Shown here: positions 58,599 to 63,575 of the stretch, one piece after another
How positions within the stretch are numbered: position 1 is the stretch's first letter
Layout of the letters: each line of letters begins with the position of its first letter
Origin: Epilithonimonas vandammei
GTDB taxonomy: Bacteria > Bacteroidota > Bacteroidia > Flavobacteriales > Weeksellaceae
DNA length: 64,000 nt
Direction: 5' to 3'
Assembly: GCF_003860525.1 (NCBI RefSeq)
Contig: NZ_CP034161.1
Coordinates: 2,852,001 to 2,916,000 of the forward strand
Notes under the pieces: model-generated
Told to the model about the DNA's origin: nothing
Database searches by the model: none
The model's input: the letters and a program-made list of their open reading frames with translations, nothing else
Made by a program: the position numbers and the translations under genes

Positions 58599-58664
58599 GA
58601 AAGTTCAAATTGTTCATTGACCTACTTTATCAAATCTTTTAGAACACTGAATGGTAACTTTTAT
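58599..58664. repeat. 66-bp direct repeat, left copy
   Basis: It begins GAAAGTTCAAATTGTTC and ends GGTAACTTTTAT, directly abutting the left end of IS copy 1. The right copy (60066-60103 plus 62922-62949, split by IS copy 2) differs only at one base, T versus C, near position 13. Confidence 0.9.
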
Positions 58665-58714
58665 GGATCAATCTCAAACCTTGGGGAGGAAAATAAAAAT
58701 GATAACTTTGGTAA

Positions 58715-59068
58715 ATGTTAAACGATGCTGAAATTCTGAAATTATTTTTACCTGAATTATTAATCGAACACTTCGATATTATAAAATTTGAAGAAGAAAA
58801 TAAGATTTTACATATCTATTTTGAAGAGAAAAATAGTGCTCCTATAGAATTTTCTTCGTTAATACTACAGTCGAAAGGATTTGTTCCGGAAATTACAGTT
58901 GATGACTTCCCTCTCCGTGGAAAAACCGTAAAACTCCATATCAAACGCAGAAGATGGACGGAAACAAAAACCGGAAACATCATCCAGAGAGATTGGTCTC
59001 TAATTGCCAAAGGAACCCGCATGACCCAGGATTTTGCCGAGTTCTTAAAAAAAATCTGCCGATACTAA
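58715..59068 (+). CDS. ISAon1-type transposase N-terminal region, copy 1
   Basis: A 117-aa basic protein. KLHIKRRRWT and GTRMTQDFAEF resemble the DNA-binding N-terminal part that precedes the DDE domain in this IS type. It ends at an A8 run (59047-59054), after which frame +1 leads into the transposase ORF, so a frameshift or transcript slippage could join them. The promoter has TTG at 58681-58683, a 19-bp spacer and TAACTTTG at 58703-58710, only 4 bp before the ATG, so the mRNA would be leaderless. Confidence 0.85.
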   Translation: MLNDAEILKLFLPELLIEHFDIIKFEEENKILHIYFEEKNSAPIEFSSLILQSKGFVPEITVDDFPLRGKTVKLHIKRRRWTETKTGNIIQRDWSLIAKGTRMTQDFAEFLKKICRY

Positions 59069-59096
59069 AGCCCTTCCCTGCAAGACCATTGGTGAA

Positions 59097-60042
59097 ATGT
59101 ACGGCGTGGATGGCCGGAAATTTCAAAGACAATATAAAAAACAGCATCAGCAATTTTAAAAACTGGGAACAAAAATCTCATGCAGAAGACTGGATTCTCT
59201 ATCCCGAAAACCTTTCAGGAAGGCTTTCGCTGGATGAAGTCGCACTTTCAGACGGCGAATTATACACTGTTCTTACGTCCAAAGCTGCAAAAGGCAGAAA
59301 AGGATCCATCGTTGCTGTCATAAAAGGAACAAGGAGTGAAACCGTCATCGAAAACCTCTTTAAAATCAATAGAGATCTGAGAATAAGAGTAAAAGAAGTG
59401 ACCCTTGATATGGCAGGATCGATGAAACTTATCGCCAAAAAATGTTTCCCAAATGCCGTGCAGGTTATAGACCGTTTCCATGTTCAGAAGCTTGCCACAG
59501 AAGCCTTGCAGGATATCAGAATCCGATATCGGTGGGAAGCAATCGAACAGGAAAATATTCTTTTAGCAGAAGCAAAAGAGAAGAAACTGAAACCTGAAAT
59601 CGAAATCTTCGAAAACGGAGATACCCGAAAACAGCTTTTGGCAAGAAGCCGTTATTTACTCTATAAAACCAGAGAAAAATGGACGGCATCTCAAAAGCAG
59701 AGGGCTAAAATATTATTTTCAGAATATACGGATATGGAAAAAGCTTATAATTTAGCTGATGGACTCCGAAAAATTTACAATCAAAAGATTCAAAAATCTG
59801 TGGCAATGCTCAAACTTGCCCATTGGTTTAAAGAAGTGGAAGAGTCGGGATTCAAAGCTTTTTCAGTACTGATGAAAACGATTATGAATCATTACAGCGA
59901 TATTCTGAATTACTTTGACCAAAGAAGTACAAATGCTTCAGCAGAATCGTTCAATGCAAAAATAAAAAACTTTAGATTGCAACTCAGAGGTGTGAGAGAT
60001 AAATCGTTTTTCCTCTTCAGATTATCAAAACTTTTTGCCTAG
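59097..60042 (+). pseudogene. ISL3-like DDE transposase, copy 1 (frameshifted)
   Basis: From ATG 59097 the frame matches the intact transposase (MYGVDGRKFQRQYK). It then breaks at an A6 run (59136-59141), where copies 2 and 3 have one base less. The ORF is 946 bp long against 945 bp in copy 3, confirming one extra base. Beyond the break the rest is intact: DDE residues in LSLDEVALSDG, TLDMAGSMK and NASAESFNAKIK, and the normal end LFRLSKLFA. Confidence 0.85.
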
Positions 60043-60065
60043 TCCCCAAGTTTTGAAACTAATCC

Positions 60066-60103
60066 GAAAGTTCAAATCGTTCATTGACCTACTTTATCAA
60101 ATC
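60066..60103. repeat. 66-bp direct repeat, right copy, first part
   Basis: These 38 bp directly follow the right end of IS copy 1 and match the start of the left repeat with one mismatch. The remaining 28 bp are at 62922-62949, displaced by insertion of IS copy 2. The last 8 bp, ATCAAATC (60096-60103), are the target site duplicated at 62914-62921. Confidence 0.9.
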
Positions 60104-60154
60104 GGATCAAGATCAAAAGTTGGGGAGAAAAATAAAAAAGGATAAATTTGAACT

Positions 60155-60508
60155 ATGTTAAATGATAGCGAACTCCTCAAATTATTACTTCCGGAATACT
60201 TAATCGAATATTTCGATATTATAAAATTTGAAGAAAAAGATAAAGTGCTTCACCTTTATTTTGAAGAGAAAGATACAATCCCCAAAGAATTTTCATCTTT
60301 ACAGCTTCAATCCAAAGGTTTTCACGACGAAATAACTGTAGATGACTTTCCGCTTCGTGGTAAATCCGTAAAGCTTCATATCAAACGCAGAAGATGGACG
60401 GACACAAAATCAGGCAAAATCTTGCAAAGAGATTGGAATCTTATCGCTAAAGGAACCCGAATGACGCAGGATTTTGCCGAGTTCTTAAAAAAAATCAGCC
60501 GATACTAA
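60155..60508 (+). CDS. ISAon1-type transposase N-terminal region, copy 2
   Basis: A 117-aa basic protein identical to copy 3 except one residue (KSGK here, KSAK in copy 3). The A8 run at 60487-60494 allows a shift to the +1 frame. That frame is open from there through SADTKALPLETIGE into the transposase. Promoter: TTG 60120-60122, 20-bp spacer, TAAATTTG 60143-60150, 4 bp before ATG. Confidence 0.87.
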   Translation: MLNDSELLKLLLPEYLIEYFDIIKFEEKDKVLHLYFEEKDTIPKEFSSLQLQSKGFHDEITVDDFPLRGKSVKLHIKRRRWTDTKSGKILQRDWNLIAKGTRMTQDFAEFLKKISRY

Positions 60509-60536
60509 AGCACTTCCTTTAGAAACGATTGGAGAA

Positions 60537-61493
60537 ATGTATGGGGTTAACGGGAAAAAATTCCGAAGACATTACAGAAAGTCCCTCAGCGAATTTAAAG
60601 ATTGGAATCAAAAACAACACGCCGAAGATTATATTCTCTATCCCGAAAACTGCCTCTCACAGCTCTCATTGGATGAAGTAGCACTGTCTCAGGGCGAACT
60701 TTACACCGTGCTCACTTCCAAGCAAGCTAAAGGAAGGAAAGGGAGTATTGTTGCCATTATCAAAGAAACCAAAAGCGACGAAACTATTGATAAACTACTT
60801 AAAATCGATCGAAAATTAAGACTGAAAGTAAAAGAGATTACCTTGGATATGGCAGGTTCTATGAAACTCGTTGCCAAAAGATGCTTTCCTAATGCAATGC
60901 AGGTTATCGACCGATTCCACGTACAAAAACTCGCCACAGAAGCCGTTCAGGAGATTAGAATAAAACACCGTTGGGAAGCTATTGATTCAGAAAATGAAAT
61001 CCTGAAACAAGCTAAAGAAAAGAAAGTAAAACCAAAAATCCAAGTTTTTAGCAATGGCGATACCCGAAAACAACTCTTGGCAAGAAGCCGCTATTTTCTT
61101 TACAAAAGCAGAGAAAAATGGACGGAAAGTCAAAATATAAGAGCAGGAATTGTCTTTCAAGAATACCCGGATTTGGAAGTAGCCTACAACTTATCGGATA
61201 AATTAAGGAAAATTTATAATCAAAACATCACAAAATCCGTTGCAATGCTCAAACTTGCCCATTGGTTTAAAGATGTGGAAGAATCAGGTTTTAAATCCTT
61301 TTCAATACTTAAAAATACCATCACGAATCATTATAATGACATTCTCAACTATTTTGACGAAAGGAGTACAAATGCGTCCGCAGAAAGTTTCAATGCGAAA
61401 ATAAAGAACTTTAGAATGCAACTTCGAGGCGTGAGAGACAAAGCATTTTTCGGATCAAGATCAAAAGTTGGGGAGAAAAATAAAAAAGGATAA
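60537..61493 (+). pseudogene. ISL3-like DDE transposase, copy 2, 3-prime end replaced by insertion of copy 3
   Basis: A 318-aa frame that matches the intact transposase until RDKAFF. It then reads into the left end of copy 3 (GSRSKVGEKNKKG) and loses the last nine or so residues. The DDE residues are all present, so residual activity cannot be excluded. The missing end of the gene lies at 62861-62890. Confidence 0.88.
61444..61451. repeat. 8-bp target site duplication of IS copy 3 (left)
   Basis: CATTTTTC directly before the left end of copy 3, repeated at 62853-62860 directly after its right end. Confidence 0.95.
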
Positions 61494-61502
61494 ATTTGAA
61501 CT

Positions 61503-61856
61503 ATGTTAAATGATAGCGAACTCCTCAAATTATTACTTCCGGAATACTTAATCGAATATTTCGATATTATAAAATTTGAAGAAAAAGATAAAGTGCTTCA
61601 CCTTTATTTTGAAGAGAAAGATACAATCCCCAAAGAATTTTCATCTTTACAGCTTCAATCCAAAGGTTTTCACGACGAAATAACTGTAGATGACTTTCCG
61701 CTTCGTGGTAAATCCGTAAAGCTTCATATCAAACGCAGAAGATGGACGGACACAAAATCAGCCAAAATCTTGCAAAGAGATTGGAATCTTATCGCTAAAG
61801 GAACCCGAATGACGCAGGATTTTGCCGAGTTCTTAAAAAAAATCAGCCGATACTAA
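61503..61856 (+). CDS. ISAon1-type transposase N-terminal region, copy 3
   Basis: A 117-aa basic protein, probable DNA-binding part of the transposase. The A8 run near its end (61835-61842) precedes a +1-frame path into the next ORF. The promoter has TTG 61468-61470 inside the terminal repeat, a 20-bp spacer and TAAATTTG 61491-61498, 4 bp before the ATG. Confidence 0.88.
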   Translation: MLNDSELLKLLLPEYLIEYFDIIKFEEKDKVLHLYFEEKDTIPKEFSSLQLQSKGFHDEITVDDFPLRGKSVKLHIKRRRWTDTKSAKILQRDWNLIAKGTRMTQDFAEFLKKISRY

Positions 61857-61884
61857 AGCACTTCCTTTAGAAACGATTGGAGAA

Positions 61885-62829
61885 ATGTATGGGGTTAACG
61901 GGAAAAAATTCCGAAGACATTACAGAAAGTCCCTCAGCGAATTTAAAGATTGGAATCAAAAACAACACGCCGAAGATTATATTCTCTATTCCGAAAACTG
62001 CCTCTCACAGCTCTCATTGGATGAAGTAGCACTGTCTCAGGGCGAACTTTACACCGTGCTCACTTCCAAGCAAGCTAAAGGAAGGAAAGGGAGTATTGTT
62101 GCCATTATCAAAGGAACCAAAAGCGACGAAACTATTGATAAACTACTTAAAATCGATCGAAAATTAAGACTGAAAGTAAAAGAGATTACCTTGGATATGG
62201 CAGGTTCTATGAAACTCGTTGCCAAAAGATGCTTTCCTAATGCAATGCAGGTTATCGACCGATTCCACGTACAAAAACTCGCCACAGAAGCCGTTCAGGA
62301 GATTAGAATAAAACACCGTTGGGAAGCTATTGATTCAGAAAATGAAATCCTGAAACAAGCTAAAGAAAAGAAAGTAAAACCAAAAATCCAAGTTTTTAGC
62401 AATGGCGATACCCGAAAACAACTCTTGGCAAGAAGCCGCTATTTTCTTTACAAAAGCAGAGAAAAATGGACGGAAAGTCAAAATATAAGAGCAGGAATAG
62501 TCTTTCAAGAATACCCGGATTTGGAAGTAGCCTACAACTTATCGGATAAATTAAGGAAAATTTATAATCAAAACATCACAAAATCCGTTGCAATGCTCAA
62601 ACTTGCCCATTGGTTTAAAGATGTGGAAGAATCAGGTTTTAAATCCTTTTCAATACTTAAAAATACCATCACGAATCATTATAATGACATTCTCAACTAT
62701 TTTGACGAAAGGAGTACAAATGCGTCCGCAGAAAGTTTCAATGCGAAAATAAAGAACTTCAGAATGCAACTTCGAGGCGTGAGAGACAAAGCATTTTTCC
62801 TTTTCAGATTATCCAAACTTTTTGCCTAG
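61885..62829 (+). CDS. ISL3-like DDE transposase, copy 3 (intact)
   Basis: A 314-aa protein. The DDE catalytic residues are likely Asp46 (LSLDEVAL), Asp104 (ITLDMAGSM, or the nearby Asp in VIDRFHVQK) and Glu283 (NASAESFNAKIK). The FHVQK and SFNAKIKNFR strings are typical of the IS204/IS1001/IS1096/IS1165 (ISL3) transposase domain. It starts 28 bp after the first ORF but can be joined to it through the A8 run. It catalyses movement of the element and could supply transposase in trans to copies 1 and 2. Confidence 0.93.
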   Translation: MYGVNGKKFRRHYRKSLSEFKDWNQKQHAEDYILYSENCLSQLSLDEVALSQGELYTVLTSKQAKGRKGSIVAIIKGTKSDETIDKLLKIDRKLRLKVKEITLDMAGSMKLVAKRCFPNAMQVIDRFHVQKLATEAVQEIRIKHRWEAIDSENEILKQAKEKKVKPKIQVFSNGDTRKQLLARSRYFLYKSREKWTESQNIRAGIVFQEYPDLEVAYNLSDKLRKIYNQNITKSVAMLKLAHWFKDVEESGFKSFSILKNTITNHYNDILNYFDERSTNASAESFNAKIKNFRMQLRGVRDKAFFLFRLSKLFA

Positions 62830-62921
62830 TCCCCAACTTTTGATCTTGATCCCATTTTTCCTTTTCAGATTATCCAAACTTTTTGCCTAGTCCCCAACTT
62901 TTGATCTTGATCCATCAAATC

Positions 62922-62949
62922 TTTTAGAACACTGAATGGTAACTTTTAT
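62922..62949. repeat. 66-bp direct repeat, right copy, second part
   Basis: These 28 bp (TTTTAGAACACTG to ACTTTTAT) complete the right repeat that begins at 60066. Confidence 0.88.
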
Positions 62950-62986: not shown

Positions 62987-63020
62987 AAAACGCTTTAAAA
63001 CGTATGTTTTAAAGCGTTTT
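62987..63020 (-). terminator. Terminator of tRNA-Asp
   Basis: Perfect 15-bp arms AAAACGCTTTAAAAC (62987-63001) and GTTTTAAAGCGTTTT (63006-63020) with a 4-nt loop. On the minus strand a T run follows. It lies 24 bp beyond the tRNA 3-prime end. Confidence 0.93.
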
Positions 63021-63043
63021 GCACTATTTTGATGTAATAGTTG

Positions 63044-63117
63044 CGATCCGGACGGGACTCGAACCCGCGACCTCCGCCGTGACAGGGCGGCATTCTAACC
63101 AGCTGAACTACCGGATC
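63044..63117 (-). tRNA. tRNA-Asp (anticodon GTC)
   Basis: A 74-nt tRNA on the minus strand. Acceptor arms GATCCGG and CCGGATC pair perfectly, and the T-arm GCGGGTTCGAGTCCCGT is standard. The anticodon stem and loop read CGCCCTGTCACGGCG with GTC in the loop. CCA is not encoded. The gene is followed by a terminator. Confidence 0.97.
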
Positions 63118-63148: not shown

Positions 63149-63167
63149 TTGCGATCCGGACGGGACT
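63149..63167 (-). repeat. Duplicate of the tRNA-Asp 3-prime end (possible attachment site)
   Basis: TTGCGATCCGGACGGGACT here repeats 63041-63059, the last part of tRNA-Asp plus two bases beyond, over 19 identical bp. The sequence then diverges. Such fragments are typically left by tyrosine-recombinase integration at tRNA genes. No integrase gene is within the window. Confidence 0.8.
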
Positions 63168-63575
63168 TGTTCTTATTTGAAAAACTCCCTATCCATAAGC
63201 TTTATATCGTTCTCTTATTTTTAGGTCACCGAATAGGTCACTTTTTTAAACAAGATTAAGATTGTTTGTTTTTACTGGTGCAAATATAGGTCTTTTTTTA
63301 TTTTTCGCAAATTATTTTACTAAATCTCATAAAAAATCATTGTAAATACCAGAGTCTCAAACATAAAATTCTTAAATATTTTTACTCTTCAATTAAAATA
63401 TATTGATTCTGAAATTCATTCATAATTATTTAGGCTGTTATATATTTAAATGTACCGATTAAAAAAAAAACGAGTAATATTTTATTTTCAAGAAATTCAA
63501 GTATATAGGTGCCATATTTTACTTTAATTTTGCTATATATAATAAGAAATATTTTATAAAATATTGTGCTCATCA
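63168..63575. other. Spacer between the tRNA fragment and the AraC-type gene
   Basis: About 400 bp of AT-rich DNA. It has the direct repeat TAGGTCAC...TAGGTCAC (63222-63241) and a -7 box TAATTTTG at 63525-63532, 43 bp before the next gene. I see no gene in it. Confidence 0.5.

What the first reader, a model, noticed from the sequence alone, without database searches (positions are those of the whole stretch)
58665..62949. Three insertion sequences stacked in and around one 66-bp repeat
Copy 3 (61452-62852) sits in copy 2, bounded by an 8-bp duplication CATTTTTC. Copy 2 (60104-62913) sits in the right 66-bp repeat, bounded by ATCAAATC. Copy 1 lies beside it. All three are 1401 bp. The insertion order is therefore readable: copy 1 first, then 2, then 3. 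Copy 2 and copy 3 are nearly identical, so the last events are recent.
Basis: seen in the sequence. Interest (0 to 1): 0.55.

Follow-up and report, generated by a model that had tools for sequence, protein, structure and literature searches.

The report
Jumping genes stacking behind tRNA genes
The three stacked jumping genes are real, and they seem to be piled up because this kind of element tends to land, in one orientation, just downstream of tRNA and other RNA genes, so later arrivals hit the tail of earlier ones.

Summary
Three 1401-bp ISAon1-type (ISL3-family) insertion sequences lie at 58665-60065, 60104-62913 and 61452-62852; copies 2 and 3 have exact 8-bp duplications. Copy 3 inside copy 2 is certain. 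"Copy 1 first" is not readable: copy 1 has no 8-bp duplication and sits between two 66-bp repeats.

The stack ends 74 bp from a terminator stem, followed by a tRNA-Asp gene pointing at it. This is a rule. Of 144 outermost right ends in related genomes, 76 have a tRNA gene within 350 bp, all 76 with its 3' end facing the element; 93 have a terminator within 120 bp. Left ends: 4 and 10 of 72. Sixty unrelated IS copies: 0 tRNA. In this genome 6 of 7 loci lie within 400 bp of one of 44 tRNA genes. Repeated hits then fall in the tail of resident copies, giving same-orientation nesting (24 of 155 right ends, 2 weak). Other Bacteroidota ISL3 elements lack this (0 of 29).

The mechanism (capture at terminating RNA polymerase) is inferred. 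I found no published description; one paper calls ISL3 target preference unknown.

The parts
58599..58664 (+). left copy of the 66-bp repeat
   Evidence: (D8, D9): 66 of 66 aligned to the right copy with one mismatch
58665..60065 (+). copy 1, subtype A, 1401 bp, no 8-bp target duplication; its orfB is shifted by one base near its start relative to copies 2 and 3
   Evidence: NCBIfam NF049916/NF049917; DNA alignment
60066..60103 (+). first 38 bp of the right 66-bp copy; last 8 (60096-60103, ATCAAATC) are the target duplication of copy 2
60104..62913 (+). copy 2, subtype B, interrupted by copy 3 at 61452-62852
   Evidence: NF049916/NF049917
61452..62852 (+). copy 3, subtype B, 1401 bp, inserted 61 bp before the right end of copy 2; CATTTTTC duplication at 61444-61451 and 62853-62860
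62914..62949 (+). second duplication copy of copy 2 (62914-62921) and the last 28 bp of the right 66-bp repeat
62988..63019 (-). intrinsic-terminator-like stem of the tRNA-Asp transcript; its T-tract side faces the stack; 74 bp from the right end of copy 2
   Evidence: own terminator finder, tested on controls
63043..63117 (-). tRNA-Asp(gtc), 3' end facing the stack
   Evidence: ARAGORN; Rfam tRNA model

Best explanation
The stack is the product of repeated, targeted, orientation-biased insertion. ISAon1-type elements preferentially insert about 30-70 bp beyond the intrinsic terminator of stable-RNA genes (mostly tRNA, also 5S rRNA and tmRNA, less often protein operons), with the right end facing the gene. 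Once one copy occupies the strip downstream of tRNA-Asp, the next insertion aimed at the same terminator falls in the 3' tail of the resident copy, in the same orientation. Shown: anatomy, association, orientation bias, distance window, recurrence in other genomes. Inferred: that the signal is the terminating RNA polymerase or the DNA just ahead of it rather than the tRNA sequence; and that 66-copy1-66 arose from two nearby copy-1-type insertions, 58 bp apart, joined by recombination or by a replicative jump between sister chromosomes.
For: Right ends: 93 of 144 with a terminator toward the element within 120 bp and 76 of 144 with a tRNA within 350 bp, 76 facing and 0 facing away; left ends 10 and 4 of 72, 1 away (Fisher 8e-13 and 4e-13). 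Loci from genomes of 1-5 contigs: right 54 and 41 of 72, left 7 and 2 of 51. Control IS of the PF01609 type: tRNA 0 of 60 on either side, terminators 9-10 of 60 right and 8-9 of 60 left. Random windows: terminator 5.5% per strand of 3000, tRNA 26 of 1500. Own genome: 6 of 7 loci within 400 bp of one of 44 tRNA genes. Sharp onset of insertions about 30 bp from the stem: 2 of 65 below 30 bp, 50 of 65 at 30-70 bp. Nesting: 24 of 155 right ends followed by another right end within 430 bp, 2 of them weak; 15 of the other 22 at 28-97 bp. IS ends lie behind tRNA-Asp in at least 6 of 23 same-genus genomes. Copies at least 99% identical to another in their genome already show it: 18 of 33 right tRNA against 2 of 33 left.
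Against: 40 of 144 right ends have neither a terminator nor a tRNA. Some elements face the RNA gene with the left end: the copy at 2521661, L074, L075, L150 and G018. 21 of 58 complete elements have no 8-bp duplication. Copies within a genome and sites shared by related genomes are not fully independent. The terminator finder is my own. Outside the family the bias is weaker: 7 of 24 right and 3 of 15 left ends. No experiment separates targeting from survival.
Confidence: 0.8

Rival explanations
1. Survivorship: insertion is near-random, but copies behind stable-RNA terminators are harmless enough to persist, and the orientation is kept because it avoids read-through transcription of the transposase.
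For: Such sites are plausibly harmless; left-end-facing copies are rare.
Against: Sixty unrelated IS copies in the same genomes show no tRNA link. Young copies already show the bias: 18 of 33 right against 2 of 33 left. Non-ISAon1 ISL3 elements of the phylum show none (0 of 29 right, 0 of 26 left).
Confidence: 0.12
2. Self-targeting: the elements recognise their own 3' end, so copies accumulate in tails wherever one copy sits.
For: Nested insertions cluster in the last 100 bp of the host copy: 15 of 22 at 28-97 bp.
Against: It does not explain the tRNA and terminator bias of the outermost ends. Seven of the 22 nested right ends lie 194-325 bp from the host end. Whether nesting also occurs away from terminators was not counted.
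Confidence: 0.05
3. Assembly artefact: the nested copies are a misassembled repeat.
For: Nested 1.4-kb repeats are hard to assemble and no reads could be inspected.
Against: Exact 8-bp duplications at both nested junctions and 5 differences between copies 2 and 3. The same architecture recurs at 2.42 and 2.70 Mb of this genome and in other genomes.
Confidence: 0.02

Closest known systems
ISAon1 group of the ISL3 insertion-sequence family
   Same: Transposase domain, split orfA/orfB, terminal inverted repeats, 8-bp duplications
   Different: No target preference described: one paper on Flavobacterium says ISL3 target preference is not known (PMC5395568, passages seen)
ISL3-linked insertion of vanHAX DNA downstream of an Enterococcus faecium rRNA operon (PMC11702846, passages seen)
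   Same: ISL3-family element, 8-bp duplication, landing in the terminator 27 bp downstream of 5S rRNA
   Different: A single rearrangement carrying extra DNA, not presented as a target rule; another bacterial phylum
TnGBS / ISLre2 / ISKra4 elements that insert upstream of sigma-A promoters (PMC3942029, passages seen)
   Same: DDE transposase, oriented insertion at a set distance from a transcription signal
   Different: Mutator-type transposase, promoters rather than terminators, narrow fixed distance
tRNA-gene-targeting retrotransposons such as Ty1, Ty3, Skipper-2 and Dictyostelium TRE3 (PMC5911963, passages seen)
   Same: Safe-haven insertion beside tRNA genes; TRE3 lands 40-150 bp downstream, much like the 58-204 bp here
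   Different: Eukaryotic retroelements guided by RNA polymerase III factors
Group IIC introns that insert after terminator hairpins (recalled, no call)
   Same: Terminators of transcription as insertion landmarks
   Different: Retroelement RNA recognises the hairpin region; no transposase

Membership tests
ISL3 insertion-sequence family | DDE_Tnp_ISL3 transposase domain | tested here: met
   PF01610 E about 1e-53 in orfB of all three copies
ISL3 insertion-sequence family | 8-bp target duplication | tested here: met
   Copies 2 and 3 exact; 35 of 58 complete elements exact, 2 with one mismatch, 21 none; copy 1 has none
ISL3 insertion-sequence family | imperfect terminal inverted repeats of 15-39 bp and about 1.2-1.55 kb length (values from PMC5395568) | tested here: met
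   23-bp perfect terminal match in copies 2 and 3, 1401 bp
ISAon1 group | NCBIfam ISAon1 upstream and downstream models above cut-off | tested here: met
   NF049916 154.7-160.9 bits (cut-off 55); NF049917 472.7-493.1 bits (cut-off 250)
tRNA-targeting mobile elements (functional class) | copies concentrated beside tRNA genes beyond controls | tested here: met
   76 of 144 right ends against 26 of 1500 random windows and 0 of 60 control IS right ends
tRNA-targeting mobile elements (functional class) | transposase or integrase recruited by the transcription machinery of the tRNA gene | not testable with these tools
   only the distance profile relative to the terminator is available
Integrative elements that use a tRNA gene as attachment site | integrase-type junction that splits and restores the tRNA 3' end | tested here: not met
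   The tRNA gene is intact and lies 130 bp beyond the right end of copy 2; the 20-bp tRNA piece at 63150 is explained by a lost second tRNA-Asp gene

The most novel reading that the evidence does not exclude
ISAon1-type transposition is guided by terminating RNA polymerase at intrinsic terminators of heavily transcribed genes: the transposition complex is captured just ahead of the stalled enzyme, with the right end toward it. This would be a bacterial counterpart of the RNA polymerase III-guided retrotransposons and, as far as I found, an undescribed way for a DDE transposase to choose its target.
Probability: 0.35. Interest if true: 0.85.

Novelty: new variant of a known kind. Interest (0 to 1): 0.7.

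Why it matters
A small insertion sequence that lands downstream of tRNA, 5S rRNA and tmRNA genes in a preferred orientation would be a bacterial parallel to the tRNA-seeking retrotransposons of yeast and slime moulds. It would answer a question left open in print for ISL3 elements in this class of bacteria (PMC5395568: target preference not known). It explains nested arrays as repeated hits on a small set of targets (44 tRNA genes in this genome), predicts where new copies will be found, and suggests a route to oriented insertion at sites that do little harm.

Tried and rejected
Rejected: the 66-bp repeat as an ordinary target duplication (the family size is 8 bp). I dropped my early idea that the tRNA piece at 63150 is an attachment site: relatives carry two tandem tRNA-Asp genes with a near-identical spacer, so it looks like the stump of a second gene. 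I first read the 2052532-2053961 element (subtype C plus 29 bp of a subtype B right end, duplication ATAATAAA) as a hybrid that jumped as one unit; a nested pair followed by a deletion between the two left ends fits at least as well, because its left tip is B-type. Self-targeting is kept as a rival. I looked at orfA for an extra targeting domain; by eye it resembles the usual ISL3 N-terminal region (alignment; the resemblance is recalled), so no structure prediction was run.

Led nowhere: literature searches for insertion sequences aimed at terminators or tRNA genes gave no description of the rule among the listings I saw; 'ISAon1' is in no paper of the library. They cover open-licence PubMed Central papers only; papers were seen as listings, or as passages for the five opened (the last was not relevant).

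Rows dropped before counting: 109 tblastn hits without a recognisable end, and ends with under 100 bp of flank; ends with the same 40-bp flank were counted once. In some searches, right ends followed within 420 bp by another right end were left out of the 144. In one search, two of the 24 nested rows (L081, L113) rest on weak matches. In one search I left out 5 right-end rows from this family when counting outside it. In one search the ORF choice was mechanical, a few may be wrong. Rfam was run on 60 loci, chosen mostly for lacking a tRNA hit, not on all.
Full report
WHAT IS THERE. Copies 1, 2 and 3 are each 1401 bp and in the same orientation, each with an orfA and an orfB. The three orfAs and three orfBs exceed the NCBIfam cut-offs for the ISAon1 group, and the orfBs carry the ISL3-family DDE domain. 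Copy 3 is bounded by CATTTTTC, copy 2 by ATCAAATC. Copies 2 and 3 differ at 5 of 1401 sites. Copy 1 is another subtype (76% identical by BLAST); its orfB is shifted by one base near its start relative to copies 2 and 3. Copy 1 has no 8-bp duplication: ACTTTTAT lies on its left, GAAAGTTC on its right, and it is enclosed by two copies of a 66-bp sequence with one mismatch. A search of the 3.28-Mb single-contig genome found that sequence nowhere else. By eye, the right copy resembles the native DNA downstream of tRNA-Asp in related genomes.

ORDER OF EVENTS. Only 3-after-2 is forced. 66-copy1-66 is what one gets when two insertions of the same element, 58 bp apart on sister chromosomes, recombine through the element, or when a replicative jump goes to a nearby site on the sister (inference). 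Copy 2 interrupts only the right 66-bp copy and could predate or follow that event.

THE SURROUNDINGS CHANGE THE STORY. Beyond the stack lie a terminator stem (62988-63019) 74 bp from the right end of copy 2, and tRNA-Asp (63043-63117); both point at the stack. The other copies and fragments found by BLAST fall into six more loci. Five lie beside a tRNA: tRNA-Leu (59 bp from the right end), tRNA-Met, tRNA-Phe, a tRNA about 356 bp from a nested remnant at 2417850, and tRNA-Gln faced by the left end of the copy at 2521661. The sixth, a fragment at 1224848, sits at the end of a tRNA-secE-nusG gene run, about 900 bp from the tRNA, with its right end facing a terminator. Six of seven loci within 400 bp of one of 44 tRNA genes has a binomial probability of 1.7e-13.

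GENERAL RULE. I collected ISAon1-type ends from 59 named loci, from the genus and family and from 16 further genomes of 1-5 contigs; flanks played no part in the choice. After removing repeats there were 144 outermost right ends and 72 left ends. Right ends: 93 with a terminator toward the element within 120 bp; 76 with a tRNA within 350 bp, 76 facing the element, none facing away. Left ends: 10 and 4, with 1 away. Genomes of 1-5 contigs alone: right 54 and 41 of 72, left 7 and 2 of 51. Random windows from the same loci: terminator 5.5% per strand of 3000, tRNA 26 of 1500. Sixty copies of eight PF01609 IS groups from the same genomes: terminator 10 right and 8 left of 60 (9 and 9 with fixed ends), tRNA 0 and 0. 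Rfam added 5S rRNA facing five more right ends (L098, L151, L163 twice, L186) and tmRNA facing one (L154). Against: 40 of 144 right ends had neither signal, some look by eye to lie in genes, and some elements face the RNA gene with the left end.

DISTANCE. In 65 cases with both tRNA and terminator, the gap from IS end to stem is below 30 bp in 2, 30-70 bp in 50 and more in 13; the gap to the tRNA end is never below 58 bp. The edge near 30 bp is about where the front of an RNA polymerase paused at the end of the T-tract would lie (footprint size recalled, not from a call). The spread is slightly tighter against the stem (sd 27.5) than against the tRNA end (sd 31.9), and terminators without a tRNA show a similar range (6-115 bp). 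The duplications are AT-rich at positions 3-7 (80-94%) and otherwise variable (35 exact duplications).

WHY THEY NEST. If hits concentrate on a few dozen short strips, second hits are common, and the strip next to the terminator is then the 3' tail of the resident copy. Right ends followed by another right end within 430 bp: 24 of 155, two of them weak; in 15 of the other 22 the distance is 28-97 bp, in 7 it is 194-325 bp. Copy 3 lies 61 bp from the end of copy 2. Another genome (G005) has a nested pair at the same step (61-62 bp), behind its own tRNA-Asp. In 23 same-genus genomes IS ends lie downstream of tRNA-Asp in at least six: G000, G002, G004, G005, G006, and G018 with its left end facing (read by eye).

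TARGETING OR SURVIVAL. Among 33 complete copies at least 99% identical to another in the same genome, 18 have a right-hand tRNA and 23 a right-hand terminator, against 2 and 6 on the left. Young copies already show the bias and other IS do not, so targeting is favoured over survivorship; only an insertion experiment can settle it. Elsewhere in the phylum the ISAon1 group keeps a weaker form of the rule: 7 of 24 right ends (within 500 bp of the stop codon) and 3 of 15 left ends beside a tRNA, each tRNA facing the element. Non-ISAon1 ISL3 elements show no tRNA link (0 of 29 right, 0 of 26 left) and few terminators (5 of 29, 2 of 26).

KNOWN OR NEW. The element is an ordinary member of a known family. 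The target rule I did not find in print. PMC5395568 says the target preference of ISL3 elements is not known and suggests AT-rich regions. PMC11702846 reports one ISL3-linked insertion into a 5S rRNA terminator. The nearest mechanistic relatives are promoter-targeting Mutator-type elements (PMC3942029) and tRNA-targeting retrotransposons, among which Dictyostelium TRE3 lands 40-150 bp downstream of tRNA genes (PMC5911963).

Noticed in passing
window 63150-63169: A 20-bp copy of the 3' end of tRNA-Asp; relatives such as G005 have two tandem tRNA-Asp genes with a near-identical spacer, so this looks like the stump of a lost second gene.
   Followed up: partly
L032 (G000:C1:2052532-2053961): A subtype C element followed by 29 bp of a subtype B right end, the whole flanked by ATAATAAA; probably a nested pair whose outer left part was deleted between the two left ends.
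   Followed up: partly
L033 (G000:C1:2417850-2422337): A complex array: a full C copy, 14 bp identical to the end of the window's 66-bp repeat, then an element whose left 1111 bp are B-type and right 290 bp C-type, split by another insertion sequence (IS3-like by eye), then an A-type tail.
   Followed up: partly
L034 (G000:C1:2521661-2523061) and L090: The same tRNA-Gln terminator carries an ISAon1 copy in this genome (left end facing, no 8-bp duplication) and another in Epilithonimonas bovis (right end facing).
   Followed up: partly
window 59047-59054, 60487-60494, 61835-61842: A run of eight A at the orfA/orfB junction, with at least seven A in 26 of the 30 distinct sequences printed; in copies 2 and 3 orfB is in the +1 frame relative to orfA, so slippage may join them.
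   Followed up: partly
L164 and other complete ISAon1 copies: 21 of 58 complete elements lack an 8-bp duplication; in L164 the inner copy seems to split a host tail with no duplication at all. Recombination among copies is likely but not shown.
   Followed up: no
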